DNA from: Phytophthora colocasiae
Lineage: Eukaryota > Oomycota > Peronosporomycetes > Peronosporales > Peronosporaceae
DNA length: 64,000 nucleotides
Direction of reading: 5' to 3'
Assembly (NCBI GenBank): GCA_018806915.1
Contig: JAGKQI010000100.1
Coordinates: 248,001 to 312,000 of the forward strand
Each line of letters starts with the position of its first letter. The first letter of the stretch is position 1. This document shows, in pieces, positions 53 to 60,286 of this stretch. The notes beneath the pieces were generated by a model, which had not been told where the DNA came from, did no database searches, and worked only from the letters and a program-made list of their open reading frames with translations. A program made the position numbers and the translations under genes.

Positions 53-3000
53 ATGAGTCGAGGGGCGTCTGCACATATGCCGTTGTCCGTCGGAGGTCTG
101 GCGATGATCGCCCAAGGTGCTGAAGCCGGGGGAATGCTCGCCGGAGAGTCTATGGGAATCCACGTGACACGAACACTGATGCCGGTGAAGTCGGAGCCTG
201 AAGACTTCGAGATGTTGGAAGAGAAGCCGGAGTTTCCAGAAGTGAAGTCCGAGAGACAGTTGTCTACCAGAAATTCTGTAAGAGATTCTGTTCACCGGAC
301 GCCAGAAGCTCCATCATCGTCCGTCTCGAGTCGTGGGAGAAGCCACCAGAGCAGGCACCAGAGTCTGAAGAGCGAGGATCACCAGAAAGTGTCTTCCAGA
401 CGCCTGAGTTCCGTTGCGTCAAGCCACACACGAAGTTCCCAGAGATCAGGCCCAGCGCAGATCGAATTGAACGCTATGCGGCAGCAACAGGAATGGCATC
501 GTCGAATGGAACAGGAGCAGAAGGAATTTCTGGCCAGAGAACGTCTGGAATCCATGGAGCGTGAACGTCGACGTGAACAACGAGAACTTGATACGCGCCA
601 GCAGATCCAGACACTTACCGACCGCCTACTTGAGTCTGAGAGCGCCAGACTGGAAACCCAGAGACGCGCGGATGACTTGGAAGAACGTCGGAGTCAAGCG
701 TCAGAGTCCAAGCCCAAGTACCATTCGAAATCGTCTGAGAGACAGGTGTCCGACGAACAAGTTTCTGGTGAACAGTTTTCCGATGTACAGCGTCTGGAGA
801 CCGAGTTTGCAGATCGCTGGAAACAACGGGAAGCCGAGGCCGAAGCCGAACGAGCGCGTTGGGCAGACGAGCTGAAACGTGACTGGATTTCGCAAATGGA
901 GACCTTACGACAGCGGGTGCACGACGTGGAGTCGGAGCGCGACAGGGAGCGGGAAAGTTCCCAGAACATGCAGCGTTTCCAGGCCGCAGAATTGAGGAAC
1001 CTTCGTGCAACATTGTCCCAAGTTCAAGGGGTCGCCCACCCTGAAGTAGCAACTTCAAGTCGGATCTCCGGTGAACATGACCCTAAACAGGCAACCGGAC
1101 TTCTGGTGAACAGTCGGGATACGGAGGATTGCACACCGGGGGTTAGGGGATCAGAAGGAGTCGCCAGCAGGGGTAGGGTTACACCCATTAAAACGACAGA
1201 GGCCTTCCATACGCCTCTTCCCTTACGGAGATCGACCGACACCAAGCGCGCGAAGGCTGGAAGGCATGGCGCGGCCACCGCGGCCGCTACGACGACCCAG
1301 ACGGCTCAAGCGGCTCCCCTGACCGAGATCAAGACTGAAGGAAGGCGCCCAGCGACTCCCAGGCGCGAAGGACACCGGAAACCAAGCGAACGACGCTCTG
1401 AAGATGGCCGGGACGCTCCTCGAAGGCCTGGAAGACGCAGGAATGACCCAGACCCTGGCGGAAGCTCAAGTGACTCAAGCTCGGACTCAAGTAATTCGTC
1501 TTCTGATGACTTGGACCCTCCGGAGGTTGTCAACCTGACTTCTGCGTCCCATGGACAAGCTGGAGCGACTCTGCTGACTATGAGGCCTTTCATAAACTCA
1601 AGTATCATCGGAGAATTTGATCCCCGAGCGACATTACGGGAGCGTGTTCACTGGTGGGAGCGTTTTGTGAACATGGCATCTCAGGGAGCATGGACGAACA
1701 AGACCCGCATTCAAGAGCTCAAGCTGAAGCTCCCAGTGTCTGCCAGAGATTGGTTCAACCAGCTTCCGAAGAGCGTTTCCCGTGACTGGAAGGAATTATC
1801 GTCGGAGTTTCGCAGGCGCTATTGCAAGGCCCGGTCCTCCGAGAGATATTTCACGATGGAAATGAAGAGTTCCGAGACTCCGTTGGACTTCTTCTATCGC
1901 CTGAACTCGGCCGCCGGAAAAGCTGAGGTGGACTTCAGAAAATCCTCCAGACGTCTGGAGAAACACGTTCTGAGGTACATCACCAAGCTGAAGGACGAGC
2001 GTCTGAAGATCGCGTTACAAGGCCGGAAGTTCAGGAGTATCTCGGACTTGGAATATGCTCTGCAACAGGACGAAGATGTCTGGCGAACAGCTGATCAAGA
2101 CACTACGACCACCAGACACCGGGATTTCCGAGCGGACAATCTCCCACGCGGACAGTTTTAAGCCGAAGCGCATGGGAAGACTTACGTCGCCCGGAGAAGC
2201 AGACCCGGATGCCTCTGACGATGTCGATGCGGATACCAGAACTCAAGAGAAGGATACAGAGCTTCGTCGTCAGAACACGATCGCGAGATGTCTGGTGTAC
2301 AATCTGCCTCTCAGGCGCCTGGTGGTGCTGATTGGACTCAGACTCTGACAAACAGAAGTCTACCGAGTCCACTGGTGGGGAGCGTTTTGTGAACATGGCA
2401 TCTCAGGAGCATCGACGAACAAGACCCGCATTCAAGAGCTCAAGCTGAAGCTCCCAGTGTCTGCCAGAGATTGGTTCAACCAGCTTCCGAAGAGCGTTTC
2501 CCGTGACTGGAAGGAATTATCGTCGGAGTTTCGCAGGCGCTATTGCAAGGCCCGGTCCTCCGAGAGATATTTCACGATGGAAATGAAGAGTTCCGAGACT
2601 CCGTTGGACTTCTTCTATCGCCTGAACTCGGCCGCCGGAAAAGCTGAGGTGGACTTCAGAAAATCCTCCAGACGTCTGGAGAAACACGTTCTGAGGTACA
2701 TCACCAAGCTGAAGGACGAGCGTCTGAAGATCGCGCGTTACAAGGCCGGAAGTTCAGGAGTATCTCGGACTTGGAATATGCTCTGCAACAGGACGAAGAT
2801 GTCTGGCGAACAGCTGATCAAGACACTACGACCACCAGACACCGGGATTTCCGAGCGGACAATCTCCCACGCGGACAGTTTAAGCCGAAGCGCATGGGGA
2901 AGACTTACGTCGCCCGAGAAGCAGACCCGGATGCCTCTGACGATGTCGATGCGGATACCAGAACTCAAGAGAAGGATACCAGAGCTTCGTCGTCAAGAAC

Positions 3001-5634
3001 ACGATCATGAGATGTCTGGTGTACAATCTGCCTCTCAGGCGCCTGGTGGTGCTGATTGGACTCAGACTCTGACAAACAGAAGTCTACCGAGTCCACTGGT
3101 GGGGAGCGTTTTGTGAACATGGCATCTCAGGGAGCATCGACGAACAAGACCCGCATTCAAGAGCTCAAGCTGAAGCTCCCAGTGTCTGCCAGAGATTGGT
3201 TCAACCAGCTTCCGAAGAGCGTTTCCCGTGACTGGAAGGAATTATCGTCGGAGTTTCGCAGGCGCTATTGCAAGGCCCGGTCCTCCGAGAGATATTTCAC
3301 GATGGAAATGAAGAGTTCCGAGACTCCGTTGGACTTCTTCTATCGCCTGAACTCGGCCGCCGGAAAAGCTGAGGTGGACTTCAGAAAATCCTCCAGACGT
3401 CTGGAGAAACACGTTCTGAGGTACATCACCAAGCTGAAGGACGAGCGTCTGAAGATCGCGTTACAAGGCCGGAAGTTCAGGAGTATCTCGGACTTGGAAT
3501 ATGCTCTGCAACAGGACGAAGATGTCTGGCGAACAGCTGATCAAGACACTACGACCACCAGACACCGGGATTTCCGAGCGGACAATCTCCCACGCGGACA
3601 GTTTAAGCCGAAGCGCATGGGGAAGACTTACGTCGCCCGAGAAGCAGACCCGGATGCCTCTGACGATGTCGATGCGGATACCAGAACTCAAGAGAAGGAT
3701 ACCAGAGCTTCGTCGTCAGAACACGATCGCGAGATGTCTGGTGTACAATCTGCCTCTCAGGCGCCTGGTGGTGCTGATTGGACTCAGACTCTGACAAACG
3801 AAGTCTACCGAGTCCACTGGTGGGAGCGTTTTGTGAACATGGCATCTCAGGGAGCATCGACGAACAAGACCCGCATTCAAGAGCTCAAGCTGAAGCTCCC
3901 AGTGTCTGCCAGAGATTGGTTCAACCAGCTTCCGAAGAGCGTTTCCCGTGACTGGAAGGAATTATCGTCGGAGTTTCGCAGGCGCTATTGCAAGGCCCGG
4001 TCCTCCGAGAGATATTTCACGATGGAAATGAAGAGTTCCGAGACTCCGTTGGACTTCTTCTATCGCCTGAACTCGGCCGCCGGAAAAGCTGAGGTGGACT
4101 TCAGAAAATCCTCCAGACGTCTGGAGAAACACGTTCTGAGGTACATCACCAAGCTGAAGGACGAGCGTCTGAAGATCGCGTTACAAGGCCGGAAGTTCAG
4201 GAGTATCTCGGACTTGGAATATGCTCTGCAACAGGACGAAGATGTCTGGCGAACAGCTGATCAAGACACTACGACCACCAGACACCGGGATTTCCGAGCG
4301 GACAATCTCCCACGCGGACAGTTTAAGCCGAAGCGCATGGGAAGACTTACGTCGCCCGAGAAGCAGACCCGGATGCCTCTGACGATGTCGATGCGGATAC
4401 CAGAACTCAAGAGAAGGATACCAGAGCTTCGTCGTCAGAACACGATCGCGAGATGTCTGGTGTACAATCTGCCTCTCAGGCGCCTGGTGGTGCTGATTGG
4501 ACTCAGACTCTGACAAACGAAGTCTACCGAGTCCACTGGTGGGAGCGTTTTGTGAACATGGCATCTCAGGGAGCATCGACGAACAAGACCCGCATTCAAG
4601 AGCTCAAGCTGAAGCTCCCAGTGTCTGCCAGAGATTGGTTCAACCAGCTTCCGAAGAGCGTTTCCCGTGACTGGAAGGAATTATCGTCGGAGTTTCGCAG
4701 GCGCTATTGCAAGGCCCGGTCCTCCGAGAGATATTTCACGATGGAAATGAAGAGTTCCGAGACTCCGTTGGACTTCTTCTATCGCCTGAACTCGGCCGCC
4801 GGAAAAGCTGAGGTGGACTTCAGAAAATCCTCCAGACGTCTGGAGAAACACGTTCTGAGGTACATCACCAAGCTGAAGGACGAGCGTCTGAAGATCGCGT
4901 TACAAGGCCGGAAGTTCAGGAGTATCTCGGACTTGGAATATGCTCTGCAACAGGACGAAGATGTCTGGCGAACAGCTGATCAAGACACTACGACCACCAG
5001 ACACCGGGATTTCCGAGCGGACAATCTCCCACGCGGACAGTTTAAGCCGAAGCGCATGGGGAAGACTTACGTCGCCCGAGAAGCAGACCCGGATGCCTCT
5101 GACGATGTCGATGCGGATACCAGAACTCAAGAGAAGGATACCAGAGCTTCGTCGTCAGAACACGATCGCGAGATGTCTGGTGTACAATCTGCCTCTCAGG
5201 CGCCTGGTGGTGCTGATTGGACTCAGACTCTGACAAACGAAGTCTACCGAGTCATGGATAACATGGGATGGCGACCGCCGCCCCAGTCTCCCCTAGGATC
5301 ATCAGGTCAAGACTTCCAACATACACGTCGGGACAACCCTGACTACTGGAACAAGTTCTGCGAGAAGTGTCGCCGCTCGGGTCACTCTGAAGAGAACTGT
5401 TGGAGAGACATTGTCTGTGACAGATGTCAGGAGAAGTGTCACCCGAGCAGGATGTGCCGAGTACCGCCGTGTGAGGTTTGCGGAAAGGTGCACTCTGGGA
5501 GACCATGCGAGGACATCAAGACTCTGGAATCCCTCAAGAAACTAGCCCGTCAAGGTACACTGAATGACCTGCCGGATCACCTACTGGAGAGACTCCTGGG
5601 TGACGAGGCTGACTCTGGGAAACAGTTAAACTAG
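53..5634 (+). pseudogene. gag: Gypsy-1 gag with internal five-fold duplication
   Basis: The first ORF (53-2161) gives a 702-aa N-terminal part: a basic/Ser-rich head, a long Glu/Arg/Gln-rich coiled-coil region (about residues 140-330), an Arg/Ser/Asp-rich linker and a capsid-like segment from about residue 530. It stops at 2161 because of one extra T in a T-run relative to the other repeat copies. The capsid segment is then repeated four more times. The last copy reads into a Cys-rich nucleocapsid (5341-5520) with several CxxC pairs (CEKC, CDRC, CEVC) resembling zinc knuckles. The true protein is probably the head, one capsid unit and the nucleocapsid. The stop TAG (5632-5634) directly abuts a -1 slippery heptamer. 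The ATG at 53 is the first in frame; an earlier start outside the window is possible. Confidence 0.8.
1648..5253 (+). repeat. Five tandem ~720-bp copies of the gag capsid region
   Basis: Units begin with CACTGGTGGGAGCG at 1648, 2370, 3094, 3815 and 4534, giving lengths of 722, 724, 721, 719 and 720 bp. The unit is 240 codons, so exact copies stay in frame. Copies are almost identical and differ mainly by one-base length changes in short runs (for example CATGGGAAG versus CATGGGGAAG, and GTTTAAG versus GTTTTAAG). Unit 5 is intact and joins the nucleocapsid. Unit 1 continues the N-terminal gag frame. The pattern fits a recent tandem expansion, by unequal exchange, replication slippage or an assembly artefact. 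Confidence 0.95.
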
Positions 5635-17038: not shown

Positions 17039-17499
17039 TGTAACGGGGTTACACGTACAAGTGATTGTACCACTGGAAACTCTAACAGTTAGGATAACTT
17101 GTTAGAGGTTTGAAACGGGCCTCAGACCTTAGTGTGCTGTACACACCAATGGCTACATGGGCGAACCACATTATTGGGTGGTTCGTGTGCATTTGTGCAT
17201 ATTATTGGTAGAAAGTAACGGATTTCTACCAATCACTGAGCAGAGTTTCTGCCGACCACACGTTGGCAGACCCTTTAGAAATAGATAACAAACAGTTTTA
17301 GGAGGTCCATAATTGGCTTATGCCAAATTCAATAACAATTCTCATTTTACGGTATTTGCAGAATTAATTTAGCTATATTTGATTTAATTATACTTATTTA
17401 AATAAGTATACTTAAATTAAGTCTATTCTAATTGCACGCTTCCTCATACACGTAAGCGCACGTGTACGCCATCTAATAGGTCTTGGTAGACCCATTACA
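17039..17499 (+). repeat. Gypsy-2 5' LTR
   Basis: 461 bp, TG...CA ends, matching 24950-25409. It is built of consecutive hairpins: CGAACCAC (17162-17169) with GTGGTTCG (17178-17185); TTGGTAGAAA (17205-17214) with TTTCTACCAA (17223-17232); TCTGCC...GGCAGA; and a long AT palindrome around AAGTATACTTATTT (17388-17416). The sequence just after it, beginning CCTGGTAGCACTTTG, is the candidate primer-binding site (TGG start as expected for a tRNA 3' CCA). Confidence 0.9.
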
Positions 17500-17548
17500 C
17501 CTGGTAGCACTTTGTAGTCCGTCCCACGACCGACTGCTGTTCGTTCGT

Positions 17549-18535
17549 ATGGAGTCATACGAACGCGGGGTAGAGAACTCCCCAATGGATGAGGGATCCA
17601 CTGGGACCCCTCACATGTCCGTGACGCGCACGGACTGTGCCCACCTGTCAGATCCAGAGTGGGAAGCTCTCCAAAGACTTTCACAAGTCATTGGAGAGGC
17701 AGCGGTAGCGACGATGCTTCGTACGCTATCGCCGACAGAGCAACACGGTGTTGCTCTGGGGTACATTGTTAAGGAGCAACGAGATGTTGCTGCCTCGGTG
17801 GCTTCCCCGAAGCCACGCGTGGAGTCGTTGAAACTCCACGTGAGTACCTACACGGGGAAGGAGGACGAGACCCTCCTTCGTTGGCTTGTCGAACTTGACA
17901 CAGCCGTTGCGGCTCGACGTATCGTCGATCGGATGTCGAAGGTCGCGTTCGCCATGTCATGTCTTGGCGGACGTGCGAGGAGTTGGGCCTATGGGCGCCG
18001 ACTCTCGGATCCTACGTGCTTCAGCACGTACGAGGAGTTCAAGGAGGAACTCAAACTTGCGTTTGAGCCCCCGAAGAACGAGTTCAGATCGAGAGCGGAG
18101 TTTCTCGATCTGCAGCAGGGCAAGGATGATGTTCACACCTTTGCCCAGCGTGCTCGATACTTGGTATCGAACATAGTGGCCAACCCGATCGACAAAGCGA
18201 CCAAGGTCGTCACGTTCATGAAGGGACTAAGAGATGGTCCCGTCAAAACATATCTCTTCCGAGAGTATCCGAATACTCTCGAAGAGGCGATCAGCCTTGC
18301 AATGCAAGAGGAGTTTAGCCGACGTCAAGCTAAACTCCATGCGAACGCGCCGAAGCCGGCGCGTCCTGTTGTGAAGACAGGAGGTCCGGAACCTATGGAC
18401 CTCTCGAGTGCTACGACTGCTGGTCAACAGCAGCGTAGGAACAGCAAGGTTCGATGTTACAAGTGTAGTAACATCGGTCACTATGCACGCGAGTGCACAG
18501 CGGGCGGGCGTTCAAAAAACGCTAAGGACCAGTAG
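17549..18535 (+). CDS. gag: Gypsy-2 gag
   Basis: Starts at the first ATG after the LTR (MESYERGVEN), 328 aa. Residues ~110-290 are a retrotransposon gag/capsid domain (LLRWLVELDTAVAARRI ... SWAYGRRL ... FAQRARYLVSN ... VTFMKGLRDGPVKTYLFR). A CCHC zinc knuckle follows near the C-terminus: CYKCSNIGHYAREC. The stop TAG (18533-18535) lies inside a 9-bp hairpin (ACCAGTAGG 18528-18536 with CCTACTGGT 18547-18555). Pol is in the -1 frame, open from 18526, but no convincing slippery heptamer lies in the overlap. Confidence 0.88.
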   Translation: MESYERGVENSPMDEGSTGTPHMSVTRTDCAHLSDPEWEALQRLSQVIGEAAVATMLRTLSPTEQHGVALGYIVKEQRDVAASVASPKPRVESLKLHVSTYTGKEDETLLRWLVELDTAVAARRIVDRMSKVAFAMSCLGGRARSWAYGRRLSDPTCFSTYEEFKEELKLAFEPPKNEFRSRAEFLDLQQGKDDVHTFAQRARYLVSNIVANPIDKATKVVTFMKGLRDGPVKTYLFREYPNTLEEAISLAMQEEFSRRQAKLHANAPKPARPVVKTGGPEPMDLSSATTAGQQQRRNSKVRCYKCSNIGHYARECTAGGRSKNAKDQ

Positions 18536-19164
18536 GCGCGGGGCGTCCTACTGGTGATGCAGTCTCGCGTGTCGAGCTTGGACACGCGACAATGAGGACT
18601 GCTGCCCCCAGCGAGAAAGTCTCTCGCTGTAAGCTGCAAGATGACAAGCCAAACCTTGTCATCCTGAACGTGATGTCGAAGAGAGTGAACTCTCTTCGTG
18701 CCCTAGTGGCCTCGGGCGCGTCGAACAACTTTGTTCGACAGGGAAGTCTTCGAAGGCTTGACTTCGAAGAAGCCGACACGCCTCGCAGCGTGTTGGAGGT
18801 GCGGTTGGCAACAGGTGCCACCGTGAGGACTGAGAAGCGCGTAGTCCGTGTACGCTTCTCTTACAAACGAAGGACGTTTGTAGAAGATCTTATCGTCTTG
18901 GATCTAGACGATAAGTTCGACTTGGTATTAGGCATGCCGTGGCTTGCACGGCATGACCCGGTGATCGACTGGGAGAAGCGTACGCTCGTACGCTTCAACA
19001 ACGCATGCGCGACAGAGAGCGATGGCCCTGTCAGTGCTGCACAAGCACCAGGCGGTGCATGTGATTCCCCAGTTGAGGCAGCAGCGGCCGCCGCTGCCTC
19101 CGATCGCCGCCGGCGACCGCCAGCGACTCAGGGAGTCGTTGGGAGAAAATGTGTGTCGACTTAG
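18526..19164 (+). CDS. pol: Gypsy-2 protease segment (active-site Asp lost)
   Basis: First ATG at 18592; the frame is open from 18526. A retropepsin-like fold is clear: ALVASGASNNFVR, then VLDLDDKFDLVLGMPWLARHDPVIDW (shown in part; the second piece is the conserved flap/C-terminal region). The catalytic triplet, normally D-S/T-G, reads A-S-G (GCC where GAC is expected), so protease activity is probably abolished. The frame ends at TAG 19162-19164 and continues in the same frame into the repeat-rich linker and RT. Confidence 0.8.
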   Translation, partial: GPVGAGRPTGDAVSRVELGHATMRTAAPSEKVSRCKLQDDKPNLVILNVMSKRVNSLRALVASGASNNFVRQGSLRRLDFEEADTPRSVLEVRLATGATVRTEKRVVRVRFSYKRRTFVEDLIVLDLDDKFDLVLGMPWLARHDPVIDWEKRTLVRFNNACATESDGPVSAAQAPGGACDSPVEAAAAAAASDRRRRPPATQGVVGRKCVST

Positions 19165-20841
19165 AAATCTGAGCCGAAGGGTCGCGGTCACATGAGTGAT
19201 GGTCAGGAGAATGTGAATCACCTGACGCATAAACATCAGAATGATGTTTGTCACATGAGTGATAGTCAGGTGAATGTGAATCACCTGACGAATAAACATC
19301 TGAATGATGTTTGTCACATGAGTGATGGTCAGGTGAATCGCATTCACCTGAGAGAAGGTAAAATACCGGTATTACCGGTATCCTTGGAGGTACTTCAAGC
19401 CCCCAAGGGTCGCGCCGACGACGTCGCGTCAACTCTGGGAGTTGACGAAGCAAATAATATTCGGGGAACCGAAAGACGTGCGTCAGCTCTGGGAGCTGAC
19501 GCCACTGGCGCTTCGCTGCTAGTTCCGGGAACTAGCGATCGGTCATCAGCTCCGGGAGCTGATGAGACGTGTATAGGCGAACAGTCGCTGCTAGTTCCGG
19601 GAACTAGCGATCGTACATCCGCTCTGGGAACGGATGATAGGTGTACAAGCGAACACTCGCTAGCGCAGGAAGCTAGCGAGAGCACGTCGACTCCGGGAGT
19701 CGACGATGCGGTTGCTTCATCCGCTCCGGGAGCGGATGGAGGCGCAGCGGTTCAGGGAACCGACTGCGCGGCAGGAGGTGCTGGCGGGTGCAAACGCCCA
19801 GCACCCGAACAACCTGCGTGCTCACGTGCAGCAGCGCTGCACGCGATGAGCGGTACTCAAGCCGGGCTTGATAGTGCGAGTCAGCGGAAGGAATCCGCTG
19901 ACGATTGCGATAACGTCCCGTCCAAGGTGCGATGCCTTGGACGTGGAGCACCTGGAGCCAGGCTCCATGGTAGATCTTCGCGGCGCAAGCTCAGGGAGCT
20001 GCGCGAGTCTCAGTCCGGGACTGAGACGGGTGTATCTGCAGTGCAGACACCGAGTGTCGAGACGTTGAACGTCTTGACACGTACTGGTACTGGGTTACAG
20101 TACCAGAGGATGCGGTTGGAGAATCCGCCGACGTGTGCGTCGGCGTTGGCCGCACTTCCAACGATGAGTTGGAAGCGCTTCGCGCGGGACTTGTACGATG
20201 GACGCATCGAACAAATTTGCATTCTCTCGGATATCGAGAGAGTGGATCGCGAAGCCGAAGAGCTGAAGCAGCTCGTCGTCGATGGGATCACTGAGGGTGA
20301 TGACTCCCTCAGTGCGAAGACTAAGCAGCAGCGCTTCGAGGAGCAGAGTTGGGACTCGTTGAGGTCGAGTCCCTACTACGAAGTTCTGCGGGAGTACAAG
20401 GATGTACTCCCGGACGAGATTCCTTCGGAGCTTCCGAAGGATAAGGGCGTACAGCACGAGATTGATCTCGTGCCGGGCACGAAGTACTGTGCTACACGGC
20501 AGTGGCCACTGCCGCGTGAACAAGTGCAAGCGATCGACGACTTCTTTGAAAGTCGTCGTATTGCAGGTCAAGTGCGGGAATCAAAGTCCCCGCACAGTGC
20601 TCCAACGTTCTGTGTTAAGAAACCACAGGGCGGCTGGCGCATCGTTCATGCGTATAACAAGCTGAACGATGCGACGATACCGGCGCAAACGCCGATACCG
20701 CGAAAAGATGTTATCATCGATTCGATGGCCTTGAGCACTATCTTCAGTGCTCTAGATCTGCGTGATGGATTCTATCAAATCCTCATGCGTGAGAGGGACA
20801 TCCCTCTCACAGCGGTAAGCACTCCAAGCGGTATGCTTTAG
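19165..20841 (+). CDS. pol: Gypsy-2 repeat-rich linker and N-terminal RT
   Basis: Same frame as the protease segment across TAG 19162-19164; first ATG at 19192. It starts with 21-residue repeats (19187-19352), then a low-complexity section of S-x-PG-x-D peptides coded by palindromes (19430-19790). RT begins near 20400 (VLPDEIPSELPKDKG), with PLPREQVQAIDDFF, HSAPTFCVKKPQGGWRIVHAYN and LDLRDGFYQI. It ends at TAG 20839-20841, one codon before E-W-L-V-MPQGLKNAP; related elements have Trp or Tyr at this place. Confidence 0.82.
   Translation, partial: KSEPKGRGHMSDGQENVNHLTHKHQNDVCHMSDSQVNVNHLTNKHLNDVCHMSDGQVNRIHLREGKIPVLPVSLEVLQAPKGRADDVASTLGVDEANNIRGTERRASALGADATGASLLVPGTSDRSSAPGADETCIGEQSLLVPGTSDRTSALGTDDRCTSEHSLAQEASESTSTPGVDDAVASSAPGADGGAAVQGTDCAAGGAGGCKRPAPEQPACSRAAALHAMSGTQAGLDSASQRKESADDCDNVPSKVRCLGRGAPGARLHGRSSRRKLRELRESQSGTETGVSAVQTPSVETLNVLTRTGTGLQYQRMRLENPPTCASALAALPTMSWKRFARDLYDGRIEQICILSDIERVDREAEELKQLVVDGITEGDDSLSAKTKQQRFEEQSWDSLRSSPYYEVLREYKDVLPDEIPSELPKDKGVQHEIDLVPGTKYCATRQWPLPREQVQAIDDFFESRRIAGQVRESKSPHSAPTFCVKKPQGGWRIVHAYNKLNDATIPAQTPIPRKDVIIDSMALSTIFSALDLRDGFYQILMRERDIPLTAVSTPSGML
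19187..19352 (+). repeat. 63-bp in-frame tandem repeat (2.6 copies)
   Basis: Units start GTCACATGAGTGAT at 19187, 19250 and 19313. Each codes for 21 residues of the type MSDGQ-NVNHLT-KH-NDVCH. The unit contains its own inverted repeats (for example CAGGTGA with TCACCTG). It lies between protease and RT. Confidence 0.92.
19430..19790 (+). repeat. Array of palindromes encoding S-x-PG-x-D peptides
   Basis: At least eight palindromic units of one design occur, each with a 5-8 bp stem around a CTGGG/CCGGG-type centre. Examples are GTCAGCT-CTGGG-AGCTGAC, CTAGTTC-CGG-GAACTAG, GTCGACTC-CGG-GAGTCGAC and TCCGCTC-CGG-GAGCGGA. Stems differ between units, but the centre and the palindromic form are kept. 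The encoded peptides read SALGAD, SAPGAD, STPGVD, LVPGTSDR and similar. Confidence 0.85.
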
Positions 20842-23781
20842 GAGTGGCTCGTCATGCCACAGGGGCTTAAGAACGCCCCTGCGACGTTCAATAGATGCGT
20901 GACACATCTATTGCGCTCGGTGCGCGACTTCGCACCGAGCTACTTCGACGACGTGTTCGTCCACAGCCGGGCTGTGAATGGGAAGACGGACATTGAGATG
21001 CACAAGGTGCATCTCCGGAAGCTGCTAGAGCTTATGAGGAAACATAAGCTCTATGCGAACCTGAAGAAGTGTATCTTCGGGGCGAGCGAGATACCCGTGC
21101 TGGGGTGTCTCGTGGGGAAAGACGGCGTGCGCCCTGACCCAGAGAAGGTCAGAGTGATCAATGAATGGCCCACGCCATCCAATGTGAAGGAACGGAGGCA
21201 GTTCCTTGGGCTTGCCACGTACTTGTGCAAGTACGTGGAGAACTACGCGGGCAAGATTCGCCCGTTGTCACAGCTTCTTAAGAAAGAAGCTGAGTGGATT
21301 TGGACGACCGAGTGCGAGGAGGCATTCGGTGCAGTCAAGCAGGGCTTGACTGAAGCGCCGATCTTGGCCGTGGCGGACCAAGATCGTCCATTCCACGTAG
21401 TGTGTGATGCATCCGACTTTGCAATCGGATGTGCATTGATGCAACACGATCACGAAGGGCGTGATCGTGTGGTCTACTATCAATCGCGTCAGCTGAAGCC
21501 AGCTGAGCGTAACTACCCCGTACATGACAAGGAGCTCCTTGCCATGAAGTATGCACTCGCAAAGTTCCGAGTGTATCTACTTGGGAGTAGACCGTTCGTG
21601 GTCTATACAGACCACGCATCATTGCGTACGGCGATTAAGTCGCCGCACATCTCGCAACGTATGGCGAGATGGTTGTCCTTCTTCGCGGAGTACAACTTCC
21701 GGGTGGAGTACAAACCCGGAAGACTCAATGTAGTGGCCGACGCGTTATCGCGTCGACCTGACTATGCGGAGACGGTCGACGCCAACGCTGTTGGCGTCGT
21801 GAGGACAAGTGTGCCGTCGTCAACGTTGGTTGACGACGTGAAGAACGCGTATGCAAGGGATGCAGACGCGAAGGGGCTGCTGGAGTTCCTCGCAGCACCT
21901 TCCGACGTGGCACGTCGGAAGCTAACCCCTCATCTTCGAGCTCGTGTACACCGCTATCGTGTACACGAAGGCCTACTGTTGTACAGTGCAGTAGACGACA
22001 ATGCGGATCGCATTGTCGTCCCGAATGATCATGACCTCCGGTTGAGGATCATGTTCGAGTATCACGATGCCCCCACGGCAGGGCATCCGGGTCGTGAGAA
22101 GACATACACGCTTCTCACGCGTGACTTCTACTGGCACCACCAGTACAAGTGGGTGCGCAAGTACGTACGTGGTTGCGAAGTATGTCAACGCGTGAAGCCT
22201 GCGCAGTTCTCGCAGGCTCCTCTTCAATCACTACCGACTCCGTCGGAGTGTTGGCAGTCCATGTCCATGGACTTTGTCTTCGGTCTTCCGCCTGACAGCA
22301 AGCGGAGGACGGGCATCGTTGTCTTTGTGAACCGATTCAGCAAGATGGTTCATCTTGCTGCCGTCCCGGCTACTGTTACAGCCGCGCAGACTGCGCGACT
22401 GTTTGTTGACATGGTGTTCAAACACCATGGCATGCCGCTCGACATTGTGTCGGACCGTGATCCACGCTTCATAGCGCGGTTCTGGCAAGAAGTGTTTACA
22501 CTTCTTGGTTCACAGTTATCAATGTCGACTGCGGATCATCCGCAGACGGACGGACAGACCGAACGTGTCAACCGTGTATTGGGTGACACGTTGAAGAGCT
22601 ACGCTCACTCGTTCCCGCATTGGAGCGAGTGCTTGCCGATGGCAGAGTTTGCCATCAACAACTCGGTGCATGCCTCGACAGGGCATACACCGTTCTACGT
22701 GAACGCCATGAGGCATCCACGATTGCCGAGCATGCTCGGCGGGGTAACTTCCTCCTTAAGTGGGGGAGGATCTACGGTTGCGTCCGAACAACCGCAGAAT
22801 GCAACTGATAGCAGCACACTATCAGCTGCGGTGACGCGTGCGACGTCTCGTTCGAGCAGGAACGAGAGCGCGATGTCTGTGCCGGGCACAGACATGAGAG
22901 ATGATAGCGAGCAGGCATGGCCTGCTGCTGACAAGGGCGACAAGCTGAATGGATTCAGCTCGGGTGCGCTAGACTTTGTCCAGCGAAGACAAGCCGTCAT
23001 ACGGTTTGTCCAGGATGCTATCGCAGCTTCTGTCGATCGACAGAAGCTGAACGCTGATAATGTTGGTAGGGGCAACATAAATGAATTCAAAGTGGGTTCA
23101 TTAGTTTTGTTAGCTACACAAAACCTGCCTAAACATACAGTGTCTGACTTTGGAGCAAGCAAGCTTGCTCCAAGATTCATTGGGCCGTTCAAAGTACTTG
23201 AACGGCATGGTAACGCGTACCGGCTGGACATACCGTCCAGCATGAGGCTCCACCCGACCTTCTACGTCGGGCGGTTGAAGCCGTACGTGCAGCACGGACT
23301 ACCTAGGGTTGGTAGTCCGACTGAGGAAGTGCGAGAGGCCTGGAAGGCCTTCTCGAGACCGTCGACACGGTCGATCAACTGGTTCACTCGTCCCAAGACC
23401 GGACGAGAGGTTCGAGGCAGTCTGAGCTGCCTCGCAGACCTCAGCACGGAGGACACGAACCTCCTGCTTCAGAGCAGCTATCTCAGCGCTCTGTGTCTGC
23501 TCCAGCGCAGCAACTCGATCGTGCAGGGCACGATCGTCATGGTCATAGCGTTGACCATGCGGAGGGAGTGTTCCCACCCCCTCCGCCGCCGTTGCGCGAC
23601 GCGCGTGGAGCGATCCGCTGGATTGTTGAGCGGATTGTGGCTCATAAGAGAACGAACTCTCAAGGGGTTCGTTTTCGTATTCGTTGGAGAGGATTTCCTC
23701 CCCATCGAGAACATGGGAGCCGCGGAACGTCCTGATGGAGGACGTTCCGGAAATGGTGAGGGCGTACGAAGCCCACCATAA
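20842..23781 (+). CDS. pol: Gypsy-2 C-terminal RT, RNase H, integrase
   Basis: Continues the RT frame from EWLVMPQGLKNAPATFN. RT active site is YFDDVFVHS. RNase H keeps its residues (VVCDASDFAIGCAL, DKELLAMKYAL, VYTDHASL). Integrase has HHCC (YHDAPTAGHPGREK ... CEVC) and DDE (SMDFVFG, SDRDPRF, TDGQTERVNR), then the C-terminal GPF region (RFIGPFKVLERHG ... LHPTFYVGRLKPY). After about 23300 the reading frame loses its family character. The true continuation, with the chromodomain, is in another frame. Confidence 0.88.
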   Translation, partial: EWLVMPQGLKNAPATFNRCVTHLLRSVRDFAPSYFDDVFVHSRAVNGKTDIEMHKVHLRKLLELMRKHKLYANLKKCIFGASEIPVLGCLVGKDGVRPDPEKVRVINEWPTPSNVKERRQFLGLATYLCKYVENYAGKIRPLSQLLKKEAEWIWTTECEEAFGAVKQGLTEAPILAVADQDRPFHVVCDASDFAIGCALMQHDHEGRDRVVYYQSRQLKPAERNYPVHDKELLAMKYALAKFRVYLLGSRPFVVYTDHASLRTAIKSPHISQRMARWLSFFAEYNFRVEYKPGRLNVVADALSRRPDYAETVDANAVGVVRTSVPSSTLVDDVKNAYARDADAKGLLEFLAAPSDVARRKLTPHLRARVHRYRVHEGLLLYSAVDDNADRIVVPNDHDLRLRIMFEYHDAPTAGHPGREKTYTLLTRDFYWHHQYKWVRKYVRGCEVCQRVKPAQFSQAPLQSLPTPSECWQSMSMDFVFGLPPDSKRRTGIVVFVNRFSKMVHLAAVPATVTAAQTARLFVDMVFKHHGMPLDIVSDRDPRFIARFWQEVFTLLGSQLSMSTADHPQTDGQTERVNRVLGDTLKSYAHSFPHWSECLPMAEFAINNSVHASTGHTPFYVNAMRHPRLPSMLGGVTSSLSGGGSTVASEQPQNATDSSTLSAAVTRATSRSSRNESAMSVPGTDMRDDSEQAWPAADKGDKLNGFSSGALDFVQRRQAVIRFVQDAIAASVDRQKLNADNVGRGNINEFKVGSLVLLATQNLPKHTVSDFGASKLAPRFIGPFKVLERHGNAYRLDIPSSMRLHPTFYVGRLKPYVQHGLPRVGSPTEEVREAWKAFSRPSTRSINWFTRPKTGREVRGSLSCLADLSTEDTNLLLQSSYLSALCLLQRSNSIVQGTIVMVIALTMRRECSHPLRRRCATRVERSAGLLSGLWLIRERTLKGFVFVFVGEDFLPIENMGAAERPDGGRSGNGEGVRSPP

Positions 23782-24848
23782 CTTGCAGGGTTAAACCCTG
23801 CACGAGGAGTGCTGCGGTCAGCCACAGCACTCGGAGCTTCGCGTGGCACAATACGACCACGTAGTTCCTTGATGTGATCGGGTACACGGACGACCGTGTA
23901 CCCCAGGAGATCACTTTCGGTGAGGCGTGTTGCCAAGGGTGGGCAACACGGACAGGGTGTGCCAAAGGGAACGGCACATGGGATCCCCGCTTCCATGGAC
24001 TGATCATGGAGGCGTTCACACTTACCACGTGTAGTGTAAGAGTAGTAGCGATCGCGAGCCGCAGCAACGCGATCGCGATATGCCTTCGTGTCTTTGTTGA
24101 AGTTTTCAACAAAGGCGTTCCACGACTGACAAAGTGCCTGCCACTCTGGCACTTTGCTCTTGCGCGAAGTCTTCTTCGCTGCATAGTATCGGAGCTCGTG
24201 GAAGAGCCCGATATAGTAGTCGCGTCTTTGAGTCTCGGACTCAAAGACAACCTTAGCGGCGACGTCGTCGTCGTTGATACTGTTGCATGAGTACAACAGT
24301 ATCGGGTTCGGTGGTGAACTAGCACCGAACCGGTCATGGATTTCTGCCTCAGTAGGCATCCATGGTGTGCGCACTGGCGGATCAGTGCGCGGGGCAGTGA
24401 GCGCCCTCGACATGGGGGACGCTTCATCATCACTGCGCGGACGCTTCGAGCTTGAAGCGTCCGAGGCCTCATGACGAGGTCGTCGAGATCCCACGGGTGG
24501 GTCTGACGTGTCTTCGGACGAAGACACGGGAGCGGGAGCCTTGACATCAACCTCCCCCTCCTCGACATCCTCCTCGTAGTCGAGGATGTCTTCGTAGTCC
24601 TCTCCAAAGAGTTCTTTGAGAGGGACAGCAGGATTCTTAATCTCTGCTAGAGAAGAAGACTTCTTCTTCTTCTCATGCTTCTCCTTATGGAGAGCATGGT
24701 ACTTGGTGACAGAGAGCTTCTCTGTCGGACCGCTGGAAGCAGCAGTGCTAGTGAGCACTGCTGAGGTCGTTGTTCCTGCTGCAGAGGCAGCAGGTGAGGC
24801 TTGCGCGTCCGCAGTAGCCGACGGAGACGTGGGCGTTGGCGAGTTCAT
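23478..24848 (-). CDS. Gypsy-2 antisense ORF (aORF2), function unknown
   Basis: 456 aa on the minus strand, starting about 100 bp from the 3' LTR and converging on pol, with ~300 bp overlap. The N-terminus is Ser/Thr/Ala/Pro-rich (MNSPTPTSPSATADA); next come a Lys-rich patch (KHEKKKKSS), an acidic stretch (GEDYEDILDYEEDVEEGEVD) and the NLS-like motif SSSKRPRSDDEASP. A globular middle section follows with many Tyr/Trp/Arg (about residues 170-320, including a Cys/Pro-rich CPCCPP). No known domain was recognised. The order of composition and the KRPR-plus-acidic motif parallel aORF1 of Gypsy-1. The coding sequence is hairpin-tiled like the rest of the element. Confidence 0.7.
   Translation of the reverse strand: MNSPTPTSPSATADAQASPAASAAGTTTSAVLTSTAASSGPTEKLSVTKYHALHKEKHEKKKKSSSLAEIKNPAVPLKELFGEDYEDILDYEEDVEEGEVDVKAPAPVSSSEDTSDPPVGSRRPRHEASDASSSKRPRSDDEASPMSRALTAPRTDPPVRTPWMPTEAEIHDRFGASSPPNPILLYSCNSINDDDVAAKVVFESETQRRDYYIGLFHELRYYAAKKTSRKSKVPEWQALCQSWNAFVENFNKDTKAYRDRVAAARDRYYSYTTRGKCERLHDQSMEAGIPCAVPFGTPCPCCPPLATRLTESDLLGYTVVRVPDHIKELRGRIVPREAPSAVADRSTPRAGFNPASYGGLRTPSPFPERPPSGRSAAPMFSMGRKSSPTNTKTNPLRVRSLMSHNPLNNPADRSTRVAQRRRRGWEHSLRMVNAMTMTIVPCTIELLRWSRHRALR
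23493..23735 (+). pseudogene. Gypsy-2 chromodomain in shifted frame
   Basis: An 80-aa frame ends in a chromodomain-like stretch, WIVERIVAHKRTNSQGVRF, then IRWRGFPPHREHGS, matching 'V-E-x-I-x-x-x-R...W-x-G-F/Y' of chromovirus integrases. It is one frame away from the integrase ORF, so an indel lies somewhere in 23300-23500. It overlaps, on the opposite strand, the 3' end of the antisense ORF. Confidence 0.65.
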
Positions 24849-24949
24849 TGCGAAATGAACTCGGATTTCTCTTGGGAACTTGACGGTCTTGTCAAGTTCT
24901 GTTGATTGACGTATCTAGACCGATACGTCGAATCTTAACGGTGGAATGG

Positions 24950-25409
24950 TGTAACGGGGTTACACGTACAAGTGGTTGTACCACTTGTAACTCTAACGGT
25001 TAGGATAACTGTTAGAGGTTGGAAATGGGCCTCAGACCTTGGTGTGCTGTACACACCAAAGGATACATGGGCGAACTACATTATTGGGTGGTTCGTGTGC
25101 ATTTGTGCATATTATTGGTAGAAAGTAACGGATTTCTACCAATCACTGAGCAGAGTTTCTGCCAACCACACGTTGGCAGACCCTTTAGAAATAGATAACA
25201 AACAGTTTTAGGAGGTCCATAATTGGCTTATGCCAAATTCAATAACAGTTCTCATTTTACGGTATTTTGCAGTTTAATTTAGTTATATTTGATTTAATTA
25301 TACTTATTTAAATAAGTATACTTAAATTAAGTCTATTCTAATTGCACGCTTCCTCATACACGTAAGCGCACGTGTACGCCATCTAATAGGTCTTGGTAGA
25401 CCCATTACA
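24950..25409 (+). repeat. Gypsy-2 3' LTR
   Basis: 460 bp, same ends as the 5' LTR. A weak purine tract (GGTGGAATGG) precedes it. Some stems differ from the 5' copy: for example CGAACTAC here versus CGAACCAC there, replacing a perfect pair by a mismatch or wobble. Confidence 0.9.
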
Positions 25410-50728: not shown

Positions 50729-51250
50729 ATTCCGCAAACCCTAGTCGCTTACCTGTAGCAACAAGAGCCTTCTTCAGCACGACAATTCTGGTACAAAAAC
50801 CACAAAATACCAAAGTGGGAACAGTAAGCTAACACGTCGTTTGCACAATCCACTGCAGTAATTCGACAAAGCTCAGGTTGACGAGGATAAAGCCACTCAA
50901 GTACTTCCAAGTTGCCCATACGAACTGCACCGCGTATGGCTTTGTCCGTAAACCCTTCTGACCTGTTTTGGTCGAGCCACTTTAGCACTGCAAGATGATT
51001 GTTTTGTGCTGCTTTATCCATCGCTTGCGTGGTGCAGCCCTCCGGTCGATTCGCGTGTAGCCATTTCACCGTATCGAGATGTCCATTTCTAGCAGCAGAA
51101 TCCATGGCGTGAGTTGTACAACCCTCCGTTCTATTGGAATGAAGCCACTTCACCACGTCAAGGTGACCATTTCCAGCGGCATAATCCATAGCATCCGTTG
51201 TACAACCTTCCGTTCTATTGAAATGTAGCCACTTTACCATGTAGAAAACT
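50729..51250 (-). pseudogene. Ankyrin-repeat gene, 3' fragment (copy B)
   Basis: On the minus strand it codes MVKWLHFNRTEGCTTDAMDY and further 28-residue repeats nearly identical to the C-terminal part of the intact ankyrin protein at 60287-62272. About 21 nt are missing near 50785, shifting the frame to a premature stop. It probably belongs with 57193-58545, from which it is separated by Gypsy-3 and some unrelated sequence. Its other end is fused to truncated Argonaute. Confidence 0.82.
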
Positions 51251-51400
51251 TCTATGCCGACGAGGGCAACAGCAATGAACCTGCTACGGTATCTATCACA
51301 CATGGACATCAATCGATCGAATCCCTGAATCCTCCACTGTGTACGCCACCGGCATGACGGAGGAAGACAGGCGGACAGACTGACGTCGTAAAGCGCAGTC

Positions 51401-51681
51401 TGTGGTGCTCACGGATTGGGAGCTGGAACTCCCGCGAAGTCAACGTGTATTGACTTCAGTAGTTGCCGGTGAATAGCAAAGTAATGTCTTAACTACTAGT
51501 ACTCTTCATGGACGATCTCGCCTACCGTAGTGGCAGTCCAGAGAGAAGCGTCCTTGATCTGTTGAACAGTATCCTCTACAGCTGCATGCTTCAGTCGTTG
51601 CGATCTGCTTAACTATGCCTGCTCGAATAGAGTATCCAGTCATGGGTTGGAGAAGCTGGGTACATGCATGCCATCATCACA
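51401..51681 (-). repeat. Gypsy-3 3' LTR
   Basis: 281 bp, differing from the other copy by about one base (CCAGAGAGAAG versus CCAGGGAGAAG). Flanked outside by CAGTC. Confidence 0.93.
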
Positions 51682-52115
51682 CTGCCCCCCAAGCTTTCCA
51701 ACTCCTCGCAGTGGTCACCAGTGCGGGTTGTAATACCGTTGTGAATATGCAGCCGCTTTTCCGTTCGTCCAATTGCGTGTCTCGTCACATATAGCGCGCA
51801 GCCGGTACACCAACTTCAACACGTTGCAGTGTTACAGGTCATTTTTGCAAAGATTTGCAACTCTTGACACCCAGCCAATGAGAACGCTCAGACTCAAATT
51901 TCAGCCAATCAGGAGTCTTGGAATCTTGAAAGTCTTCGTACGGAGCAGATATCCTTGTGATTGACCCCAGACCCCGTTATCCGCTGTAGTGCAGTACTGA
52001 ACACGTTGTCCATTGGTCACAGAACTTCTTTGGCTCGACAGAGGTTTATAGACGCAAATCCTCCCAAACTAGATCATCAGCTTTGGAAGGAAGTCACCAT
52101 AACTCTGCTTCTAGT
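51682..52115 (-). other. Gypsy-3 3' untranslated region
   Basis: Between the pol stop and the 3' LTR. No gene seen; it ends in the G-rich polypurine tract. Confidence 0.6.
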
Positions 52116-56410: not shown

Positions 56411-56469
56411 CTCAGAGATAATTCGATCCTCTGTAACCGCCTCGTTGGAGTGGAGGCGCTGAGTTTATC

Positions 56470-56877
56470 TCACTCCAGTTTGCATAGAGTAGACAGCAAT
56501 TGTCGATTAAAGCAGTTCTTCACGCTTCTCAGCGCTTTCGCTTTGTCTTCTCCGGTGGCGGCGCAACGCGCCTCAATCGCCTCTTCATACTCCTGTCGCT
56601 CTCGTTTCCATTTAACCAACGCGGGGTGCGAAACGTCCGTAATGTACGGTGGAACGATCGAGCTAGCCGTCACCGGGACCTGGTTGTCATTCCCCGACGG
56701 GGCAGTCGTGGTTATACCCGATGCCGTCGGAGTGGTTGCAGTGTTCGTCATAGTTTGCGACGACCTCTGGTCACTTTGGCTAGGACGCCCACTACGGGTT
56801 TGCATCGCTTCTTGCACGATACTAAAGTTAACTTTGTGGTGCTCACGGATTGGGAGCTGGAACTCCCGCGAAGTCAA
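56470..56877 (-). CDS. gag: Gypsy-3 gag N-terminus
   Basis: ORF on the minus strand starting within the 5' LTR edge. A more likely start is MQTRSGRPSQSDQ at about 56805, just inside the LTR. A Thr/Ser/Pro-rich head leads to a helical part (WKRERQEYEEAIEARCA). The frame closes at TGA near 56470. The next frame (SNEAVTEDRIISELDKIIGN) continues gag, so a short frameshift plus stop separates the two. Confidence 0.7.
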   Translation of the reverse strand: MTSREFQLPIREHHKVNFSIVQEAMQTRSGRPSQSDQRSSQTMTNTATTPTASGITTTAPSGNDNQVPVTASSIVPPYITDVSHPALVKWKRERQEYEEAIEARCAATGEDKAKALRSVKNCFNRQLLSTLCKLE

Positions 56878-57115
56878 CGTGTATTGACTTCAGTAGTTGC
56901 CGGTGAATAGCAAAGTAATGTCTTAACTACTAGTACTCTTCATGGACGATCTCGCCTACCGTAGTGGCAGTCCAGGGAGAAGCGTCCTTGATCTGTTGAA
57001 CAGTATCCTCTACAGCTGCATGCTTCAGTCGTTGCGATCTGCTTAACTATGCCTGCTCGAATAGAGTATCCAGTCATGGGTTGGAGAAGCTGGGTACATG
57101 CATGCCATCATCACA
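56835..57115 (-). repeat. Gypsy-3 5' LTR
   Basis: 281 bp, outer flank CAGTC. Inside, on the minus strand, it is followed by AAGTTAACTTTAGTATCG, the candidate primer-binding region. Confidence 0.93.
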
Positions 57116-57192
57116 CAGTCACGATATGTCATTGCAGACTGGAAACAACACCACAAACTACTGGAGAGTCCATACAGCAATTGTTTTTCATA

Positions 57193-58545: not shown

Positions 58546-58765
58546 CGTCTTAAATAGAGTCGTCTGATGGAGGGTTTGATCATGAATTCTAATGATATTG
58601 CATTCTGGGAATGCTGATCCTTTCTTGGAAAGTGAAGAGAGTCCAGATTTCTGACTGAAGCGAGTAGACACCTATCGAGAATCGTTCTTGAAGGACTTGA
58701 AGTGATCTCCAGGATGTTTATTGTTTTCTGTGGTTCATTTCTGAATTTGTGACCCAGTCAGCAGC
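58546..58765. promoter_or_regulatory. Head-to-head intergenic region of ankyrin/membrane gene pair
   Basis: 220 bp between divergent start codons. It is conserved, in opposite orientation, at 60121-60286, and in part at 62550-62641 (ACGAGAATCGTTCTTGAAGG, GTTTATTGTTTTCTGTGG). The copy at 60121-60286 lacks about 60 bp next to the membrane-gene start. Its conservation between duplicates suggests a shared bidirectional promoter; no TATA or Inr was assigned. Confidence 0.55.
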
Positions 58766-59698: not shown

Positions 59699-59989
59699 TA
59701 GAGAATGGCGATTTCGTTCTTTGATTTTCGATTAGCAGGTAGGTAAAAGTTGATTAACTTTACCTAGACTACATCTTGCAGGCTATGGTATTACCAATGT
59801 CTCACGTCTAGCTTCGTGGATTCCATGTTTGGTTTTGTAGGGAAGAAGTTCAGTTTTTTCCGCCTCAAATTACAAGCTCATAAGCATTCAGTTAAGCTCT
59901 TCACCATCAATATTCCAACCAGACGAATAGAAATGACAGTGGGGGATTGATTACAAGCCCACAGCGATTTCAGGGGTGTATAACAGCGA
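59699..59989. other. Intergenic sequence at the inverted-duplication centre
   Basis: No gene seen. Contains the inverted repeat TTTACCT/AGGTAAA (near 59740-59765). It joins the 3' end of the intact membrane gene to the truncated, inverted paralogue. Confidence 0.4.
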
Positions 59990-60120: not shown

Positions 60121-60286
60121 GCTGACTGGGTCACAAGAACGATTCTCGATAGGTGTCTACTAGCTTCAGTCAGAAATCTGGCTTCTCTTCACTTTCCAAG
60201 AAAGGATCAGCATTCCCAGAATGCAATATCATATACAGTCATAATCCAACCTTCAGGATTCCCATCAGACGACTCCATTTGACACG

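What the first reader, a model, noticed from the sequence alone, without database searches (positions are those of the whole stretch)
17039..25409. A retrotransposon whose whole sequence, coding and LTR, is tiled with short perfect hairpins
Reading Gypsy-2 linearly, one 6-10 bp inverted repeat with a 2-12 nt loop follows another almost without gaps. Checked examples: TTGGTAGAAA 17205-17214/17223-17232 (LTR); CGTGGAGT 17818-17825/17833-17840; CGAGAGTAT 18260-18268/18273-18281; GAGTTTAGC 18311-18319/18329-18337; CACTGAGGG 20289-20297/20306-20314; CGACGACTT 20535-20543/20550-20558; CATGGTGTT 22410-22418/22421-22429; AAGAAGTGT 22487-22495/22498-22506; GGGTACACGG 23880-23889/23894-23903; GGTTCGGT 24305-24312/24324-24331. 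They occur in LTR, gag, pol and the antisense ORF, irrespective of reading frame, while conserved protein motifs are kept. Gypsy-1, Gypsy-3 and Copia next to it do not show this. Possible causes: repeated quasipalindrome correction by template switching during reverse transcription, or selection for a structured genomic RNA. I know of no described element like this.
Basis: partly seen in the sequence, partly recalled or inferred. Interest (0 to 1): 0.88.

Follow-up and report, generated by a model that had tools for sequence, protein, structure and literature searches.

The report
Retrotransposon tiled with short perfect hairpins
A jumping gene has about half of its sequence arranged as short perfect mirror-image hairpins, and its copies show some of these hairpins flipped, and one lengthened, by copying from the opposite strand, which points to an unusual copying habit more than to a designed RNA shape.

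Summary
All ten listed hairpins are exact. Gypsy-2 has about 18.6 perfect stems of >=7 bp per kb against 0.9 in the rest of the window; synonymous shuffles average 1-4 per ORF where 11-54 are seen. Stems are short (mostly 7-11 bp), local, and occur in LTRs, gag, pol and an antisense gene. A sister family is also enriched, with hairpins mostly elsewhere; the window's other retroelements and a 27-copy Gypsy family are not.

RNA-structure selection is disfavoured: G.U and A.C mismatches are equally common, the strands of the sense region fold alike, positions turn over, pairing runs into the loop.

Copies show template switching: eight loop inversions, and one 8-bp stem that became 17 bp. Best explanation: repeated short-range switching to the opposite-polarity strand during the element's replication. 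Gaps: visible events are about 1% of variants, while a neutral model needs over 0.4 per point mutation, and one inversion is in a single LTR, so late or post-integration. No such retrotransposon appeared in the literature listings seen; the nearest parallel is hairworm mitochondrial genes.

The parts
17039..17499 (+). 5' LTR (TGTAAC...TTACA), itself hairpin-rich
   Evidence: LTR ends, 441 of 460 aligned positions identical to the 3' LTR, 1 gap; 4 stems >=7 bp in 17039-17420 vs 0.36 expected
17483..18535 (+). gag ORF
   Evidence: PF03732 E 2.2e-14, zinc knuckle PF00098; 15 stems >=7 vs 1.1 in synonymous shuffles
18592..19164 (+). protease ORF
   Evidence: PF08284 RVP_2 E 6.4e-9; 11 stems vs 1.0
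19192..20841 (+). spacer with repeated hairpin motifs, then start of reverse transcriptase; ORF ends at an in-frame stop 20839-20841
   Evidence: (PF00078 E 5.2e-6, 26.8 bits, below the curated cut-off of 29.6); 36 stems vs 2.2
20854..23781 (+). rest of RT, RNase H, integrase with SH3 (Tf2-1-like) domain
   Evidence: PF17917 E 3.9e-35, PF17921, PF00665, PF24626; 54 stems vs 3.6
23478..24848 (-). antisense ORF, 456 aa, convergent with pol, under coding constraint
   Evidence: variants shared by copies fall 65/22/18 on codon positions 3/1/2; no significant Pfam match; 27 stems vs 2.4
24950..25409 (+). 3' LTR
   Evidence: 6 stems in 24951-25409 vs 0.42
19817..19852 (+). site of an 8-bp hairpin (19825-19843; same haplotype in 21 of 30 copies) that is a 17-bp perfect stem in copy L009
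21444..21470 (+). 11-bp hairpin whose 5-nt loop AAGGG is inverted to CCCTT in L022 and L028
21778..21798 (+). hairpin with loop GCT inverted to AGC in L019, L025, L028
22700..22719 (+). short quasi-hairpin; loop ATGA inverted to TCAT in L030 (a stem-pairing C to T change there also occurs without the inversion in L017 and L025)
23880..23903 (+). 10-bp hairpin of the finding; loop ACGA inverted to TCGT in L020

Best explanation
The element is a Ty3/Gypsy LTR retrotransposon of a lineage whose replication repeatedly makes short-range template switches. SHOWN: copies differ by sequence that equals the opposite strand within a hairpin, giving inverted loops and, once, a much longer stem. SHOWN: stems are mostly perfect, 7-11 bp, within about 30 nt, strand-symmetric, and mostly at other positions in a related family. 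INFERRED: the switching occurs mainly during the element's own cDNA synthesis, when both strands are present, because hairpin tiling marks Gypsy-2, its sister family and one further repeat but not the other retroelements examined in this genome. INFERRED: near-palindromes are completed by copying one arm onto the other, the proteins tolerate what they can, and point mutations erode the stems again, so the tiling is mainly a by-product and not a designed structure.
For: Caught events: 12 of 66 linked multi-site variants among 30 copies (the window's own included) match a local reverse complement over >=9 nt; reverse-only control 1, complement-only 3; control Gypsy family 0 of 14. The 12 are 11 events: 8 loop inversions (21455, 21745, 21787, 22708, 23161, 23890, 24448, 25003), the L009 stem growth from 8 to 17 bp, and 2 doubtful (one 9-nt match, one low-complexity). 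Loop inversion needs the opposite strand as template (mechanism as in PMC8604942). Hairpin centres shared with the sister family: 2 of 14 (shift null mean 0.6, max 3). Unique single-mismatch stems in the window: G.T 10, A.C 12, other 11; between copies G.T 78, A.C 77, transversions 96. MFE per 100 nt in the sense region: + strand -39.4, - strand -39.0. Innermost pair closed in 31 of 64 tight hairpins against 25% expected. Amino-acid identity to relatives is lower in arms: 34 of 119 vs 168 of 397 outside (L058), 88 of 152 vs 282 of 440 (L063).
Against: Rate gap: 12 switch clusters against 1023 variant states, whereas one neutral simulation run per setting reached only 12.6 stems/kb at 0.4 arm-copies per point mutation. 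Single-site changes that create stems are near chance: 24 vs 19.0 (singletons 14 vs 13.1, shared 10 vs 5.9). Only 3 two-sided Watson-Crick changes, beside 4 two-sided non-pairing ones. Stem growth in one step is seen once; its loop (GCT) is the inverse of the usual AGC but is also one change from the GGT of L014 and L028, so inversion is not certain there. L022's LTR loop is inverted in the 3' LTR and not in the LTR at the expected 5' place. No arm asymmetry and no pair-orientation bias pointing to one strand's synthesis. In the sister family the innermost pair is closed in 7 of 21, not clearly above 25%. The cap near 11 bp was not predicted, and the L009 stem exceeds it. The control family is small in variants (179 states).
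Confidence: 0.47

Rival explanations
1. Selection keeps strict base pairing of the element's nucleic acid (for instance cDNA or a both-strand property), with template switching supplying the variants.
For: Isolated variants shared by two or more copies avoid stems (20 of 104 vs 34.1 expected, p 0.003) more than singletons do (85 of 316 vs 104.2, p 0.02); the 3 two-sided changes are all shared by 3-5 copies; the mutation-only rate gap.
Against: Positions are little conserved in the sister family; arms are the less conserved protein positions; arm-to-arm conversion predicts the same depletion; no candidate benefit is known to me.
Confidence: 0.24
2. Selection for a structured genomic RNA (genome-scale ordered structure).
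For: Very stable folding: about -39 kcal/mol per 100 nt against -27 (Gypsy-1) and -22 (Copia) on the + strand; in the antisense-only part 23782-24848 the + strand, which is the genomic RNA, folds better (-41.9 vs -38.9), though Copia shows a difference of that size the other way.
Against: G.U is not preferred over A.C; both strands fold alike in the sense region; positions turn over; pairing extends into the loop centre.
Confidence: 0.12
3. Host chromosomal replication makes the switches in integrated copies; the element's perfect hairpins are simply hot spots.
For: L022 inversion in one LTR only; 6 of 8 clean loop inversions are private to one copy; the same event types are known on yeast chromosomes (PMC8604942).
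Against: Explains flipping of existing hairpins but not why Gypsy-2, its sister and one repeat have them while a 27-copy Gypsy family, L056 and the window's other retroelements do not.
Confidence: 0.12
4. Assembly or sequencing artefact, or chance.
For: None found.
Against: 39 other scored copies match the window at 97-99% over 2376-2928 of 2928 bases (one partial, with a further piece at 95%); the aligned copies carry the hairpins; shuffles exclude chance.
Confidence: 0.01

Closest known systems
Coding palindromes in Nematomorpha mitochondrial genes (PMC6649704; abstract, Discussion and a few found passages seen)
   Same: Perfect inverted repeats scattered through functional protein genes, gained and lost between species; conversion by template switching proposed there
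   Different: Mitochondrial DNA, arms up to 284 bp and no excess of imperfect repeats; here an LTR retrotransposon in many chromosomal copies, arms mostly 7-11 bp, an excess of single-mismatch stems, and switching events seen between copies
Inverted-repeat template-switch mutations in S. cerevisiae genes (PMC8604942; abstract and one Results section seen)
   Same: Spacer inversion inside perfect arms, and arm homogenisation with spacer inversion (REG2, 5 to 16 bp), like L009 (8 to 17 bp)
   Different: There, ten spacer-inversion events in coding sequence of the strains studied; here one element is tiled with hairpins
Template switching creating RNA hairpins (PMC8794818; abstract and Discussion seen)
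   Same: One-step creation and repair of stems; complete loop inversion marks the inter-strand route
   Different: There RNA genes are studied; here no sign of RNA-level selection, and the pair-orientation bias discussed there for intrastrand events was not found
LTR retrotransposons with an antisense ORF, such as plant Retand (PMC11963269; search listing and start of abstract only; that the ORF lies between pol and the 3' LTR is partly recalled)
   Same: Gypsy element with an extra reverse-strand ORF
   Different: No hairpin tiling mentioned in what was seen; relationship not tested

Membership tests
Ty3/Gypsy LTR retrotransposon | Two LTRs with TG...CA ends | tested here: met
   TGTAAC...TTACA, 441 of 460 identical
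Ty3/Gypsy LTR retrotransposon | gag, protease, RT, RNase H, integrase in this order | tested here: met
Ty3/Gypsy LTR retrotransposon | Short target-site duplication | tested here: not met
   flanks CTGAT and ACTGG differ; possible recombinant or aged insertion (LTRs 19 of 460 positions different)
Ty3/Gypsy LTR retrotransposon | Primer binding site and polypurine tract | not tested
   no call made
Template-switch (quasipalindrome) mutation | New sequence is the reverse complement of adjacent sequence | tested here: met
   12 of 66 clusters, controls 1 and 3; control family 0 of 14
Template-switch (quasipalindrome) mutation | Spacer inversion and arm homogenisation | tested here: met
   8 spacer inversions, 1 arm homogenisation
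Template-switch (quasipalindrome) mutation | Event rate sufficient to account for the tiling | tested here: inconclusive
   visible rate far too low, but reversions by arm copying leave no trace
Selected genome-wide RNA structure | G.U tolerated over A.C, sense strand folds better | tested here: not met
   exception: + strand folds better in 23782-24848
Selected genome-wide RNA structure | Helix positions conserved between relatives | tested here: not met
   2 of 14 shared, shift null mean 0.6, max 3
Coding palindromes of the Nematomorpha type | Perfect inverted repeats inside functional coding sequence | tested here: met
   shared variants in pol fall 46/18/17 on codon positions 3/1/2
Coding palindromes of the Nematomorpha type | Long arms without an excess of imperfect repeats | tested here: not met
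   arms mostly 7-11 bp, 93 one-mismatch placements (arm 9, overlapping counts) vs 6.2 in shuffles; 33 unique

The most novel reading that the evidence does not exclude
A clade of Gypsy elements has a replication machinery that systematically copies short stretches back from the opposite strand, so that its genome drifts toward a steady state of perfect hairpins about one helical turn long; the tiling is a heritable signature of that machinery, with proteins evolving under a continual palindrome-making pressure.
Probability: 0.38. Interest if true: 0.87.

Novelty: new variant of a known kind. Interest (0 to 1): 0.75.

Why it matters
Template switching is known as a rare source of clustered mutations; here it, or something that exploits it, seems to have reshaped a whole multi-gene element while its proteins stayed recognisable. 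With dozens of copies at graded divergence in one assembly, the element is a natural record for measuring how hairpins are born, flipped and lost, and for asking whether perfect stems in sequence always mean a selected RNA structure. It also bears on the unexplained palindromes of hairworm mitochondria.

Tried and rejected
Chance and codon usage: rejected by shuffles. Codon-phase preference: classes 30/38/42 against background 400/419/435, no test made, no clear signal. Arm asymmetry to identify the strand of synthesis: none. Pair-orientation bias expected of intrastrand switching: G-C 396 vs C-G 358, T-A 273 vs A-T 294, not significant. First alignment was wrong because minus-strand loci were not turned round; repeated. 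One search gave 73 two-sided Watson-Crick changes; one search showed that L026, L027, L030 (5' part) and L012, L007 (3' part) run into unrelated sequence there; after masking by local identity 3 remain. In one search, 232 of 268 clusters were dropped by a density filter; one search repeats the test with the mask and keeps 66. The raw loop scan gave 21 of 518 loops, controls 3 (reverse) and 6 (complement; two or three of these are the same true inversions of self-similar loops); several of the 21 are 2-nt, low-complexity or in unrelated flank and are not counted. The L030 change at 25167 lies near the centre of a 257-nt palindrome and is not counted. On checking, I withdrew L030 22708 as a second stem-growth event, since its pairing change also occurs in L017 and L025; for this I lowered the best explanation from 0.50 to 0.47 and the novel case from 0.40 to 0.38, and raised the selection rival from 0.22 to 0.24. 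The 30 loci are not 30 families: 27 are copies of one, plus L048, L056 and the Gypsy-2 copy L059. Whether Gypsy-1, Gypsy-3 and the 27-copy family are distinct was not tested. The viral-contig search found nothing. Literature searches for a retrotransposon of this kind showed none in the rows listed (capped lists; one search returned no paper); no preprints are held.
Full report
WHAT IS THERE. Window 17039-25409 is a Ty3/Gypsy LTR retrotransposon: LTRs 17039-17499 and 24950-25409 with TG...CA ends and 441 of 460 identical positions, gag, protease, RT, RNase H, integrase with an SH3 domain, and a 456-aa ORF on the opposite strand, 23478-24848. The sense reading is split in this copy, among others by an in-frame stop at 20839-20841. 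Flanking 5-mers differ, so no target duplication is seen. In the genome (G000, 92.5 Mb, 105 contigs) 40 candidates of 1062 were scored; one is the window itself and the 39 others match at 97-99% over 2376-2928 of 2928 bases of pol, one of them in two pieces, the smaller at 95%.

THE OBSERVATION. All ten examples are exact. With loops of 0-12 nt the element has 9.3 stems of >=7 bp per 500 bp (lowest 5, 16 bins) and the rest of the window 0.47 (highest 3, 111 bins). The excess holds for each of five ORFs against 100 synonymous shuffles and in each of 14 sub-regions against dinucleotide shuffles. 183 non-overlapping hairpins with stems of >=6 bp cover 47%. Stems of >=8 bp with loops up to 16 nt number 127, against 0-3 in five shuffles; with loops of 17-40 nt there are 3 against 0-7; with loops of 41-100 nt there are 16 against 1-8, a slight excess that I did not follow. 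Stem length falls sharply after 11 bp: 44 of 9, 28 of 10, 15 of 11, 1 of 12, 1 of 13.

WHERE ELSE. Of 30 loci found with the integrase SH3 profile, 27 are copies of one Gypsy family, mostly about 36-39% identical to Gypsy-2 pol in the main aligned stretch; these and L056 have 0.3-3.4 stems of >=7 bp per kb, flanks included. L059 is a Gypsy-2 copy. L048/L063 is a related family (54-66% amino-acid identity in three stretches; 64% DNA) with 6.1 stems per kb in the aligned stretch, where Gypsy-2 has 18.1. Only 2 of its 14 stems share a centre with a Gypsy-2 stem (shift null mean 0.6, max 3). Against L064, an 82% copy of that family, 4 of 10 stems of L048 sit at the same place, two unchanged in sequence and one with a compensated pair. 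The flank of L037 (2416-3198), a repeat with 40 scored places at 98-100%, has 9 stems where 0.46 are expected and no similarity to Gypsy-2 found by blastn or tblastn.

IS IT RNA STRUCTURE? A selected RNA should tolerate G.U but not A.C. Unique single-mismatch stems in the window have G.T 10, A.C 12, other 11. One-sided variants in 993 stem pairs of 30 copies are G.T 78, A.C 77, transversions 96; among isolated variants shared by copies 9 and 9. Both strands of the sense region fold alike (-39.4 and -39.0 kcal/mol per 100 nt; Gypsy-1 -26.9/-26.2, Copia -21.6/-24.9); the antisense-only part folds better on the + strand (-41.9/-38.9), which is a point for the RNA rival there, though Copia shows as large a difference in the other direction. 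In tight hairpins the innermost pair, which an RNA loop cannot form, is also closed in 31 of 64 against 25% expected (p 6e-5); in the sister family 7 of 21. Protein identity to relatives is lower in arms than outside, while DNA identity to the sister family is about the same in arms (0.66/0.65) as outside (0.63).

IS IT TEMPLATE SWITCHING? Most variants between the 30 copies are private; shared ones group the copies in conflicting ways. After masking non-homologous parts there are 1023 variant states (737 in one copy, 286 shared) and 66 linked clusters; 12 equal a local reverse complement over >=9 nt, against 1 (reverse) and 3 (complement). The control family gives 0 of 14 with only 179 variant states, so it is a weak control. 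The 12 are 11 events: 8 loop inversions, for example 21455-21459 AAGGG to CCCTT in L022 and L028 and 23890-23893 ACGA to TCGT in L020, one stem growth, and 2 doubtful. In L009 the 8-bp stem at 19825-19843 is 17 bp: the left side reads as the reverse complement of the right, with one base inserted, and the loop GCT is the inverse of the usual AGC, though L014 and L028 carry GGT there. The L030 loop inversion at 22708 comes with a change that adds a pair, but L017 and L025 have that change without the inversion. Inverted loops need the opposite-polarity strand as template; simple fold-back of the growing strand would keep the loop. The same two event types are described on yeast chromosomes (PMC8604942).

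WHEN DOES IT HAPPEN? Isolated variants shared by copies, which passed through replicating ancestors, avoid stems (20 of 104 vs 34.1 expected), singletons less so (85 of 316 vs 104.2). The 3 two-sided Watson-Crick changes are each shared by 3-5 copies. This fits upkeep during the element's replication, by conversion or by selection. Against an early event stands L022, whose loop at 25003 is inverted in the 3' LTR but not in the LTR at the expected 5' place; the sequence between was fetched only in part. L030 ends in a 257-nt palindrome (arms about 128 nt) reaching the end of the fetched locus and turning near an LTR hairpin.

THE GAP. A neutral simulation with arm copies of up to 10 bp, one run per setting, reached 5.1, 8.1 and 12.6 stems per kb at 0.1, 0.2 and 0.4 events per point mutation; the element has about 18. 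Visible switch clusters are 12 against 1023 variant states. Reversions by arm copying leave no trace, and the rate may have been higher in the past, but present-day events are not shown to suffice. Single-site stem gains are 24 vs 19.0 expected (singletons 14 vs 13.1, shared 10 vs 5.9). I therefore put the mutational by-product account at 0.47 and keep selection for strict pairing as the main rival.

KNOWN PARALLELS. Hairworm mitochondrial genes hold long perfect coding palindromes that come and go, with template switching proposed (PMC6649704, abstract, Discussion and found passages; follow-up PMC10380579, abstract). Template switching can create and mend stems (PMC8794818, abstract and Discussion). 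In nine literature searches no row listed showed a retrotransposon tiled with hairpins; the lists were capped, and the library lacks preprints and most subscription journals.

Noticed in passing
23478-24848 (-): The antisense ORF behaves as a real gene: variants shared by copies in 23782-24845 fall 65/22/18 on its codon positions 3/1/2, singletons 60/52/44. No significant Pfam match; best is DUF3472 at E 0.076.
   Followed up: partly
L037:2416-3198: A 783-bp repeat with 40 scored places at 98-100% identity is hairpin-rich (9 stems of >=7 bp vs 0.46) and not similar to Gypsy-2 by blastn and tblastn.
   Followed up: partly
L030:5674-5930: The 3' LTR of this copy runs into an inverted copy of itself, a 257-nt palindrome matching at 92.7% that reaches the end of the locus and turns near an LTR hairpin.
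   Followed up: partly
19420-19780: A run of hairpins whose arms differ but whose centres are alike (CTCCGGGAG-like), read directly from the sequence; looks like a diverged tandem repeat whose stems stayed paired.
   Followed up: no
1656-5400: Five direct repeat units about 720 bp apart, with several pieces 93-100% identical, spanning open reading frames.
   Followed up: no
50778-62117: Large inverted repeats (700 nt at 93%, 463 nt at 98%, 342 nt at 85%), some arms of which overlap an ankyrin-repeat ORF at 60287-62272.
   Followed up: no
L008, L020, L022, L026, L028 near window 24030-24690: A subfamily that lacks the stretch at window 24350-24400 and shares a compensated stem pair (A-T to C-G at 24651/24673).
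   Followed up: partly
17039-25409, loops of 41-100 nt: Stems of >=8 bp at 41-100 nt distance are 16 against 1-8 in five shuffles, a weak longer-range excess.
   Followed up: no
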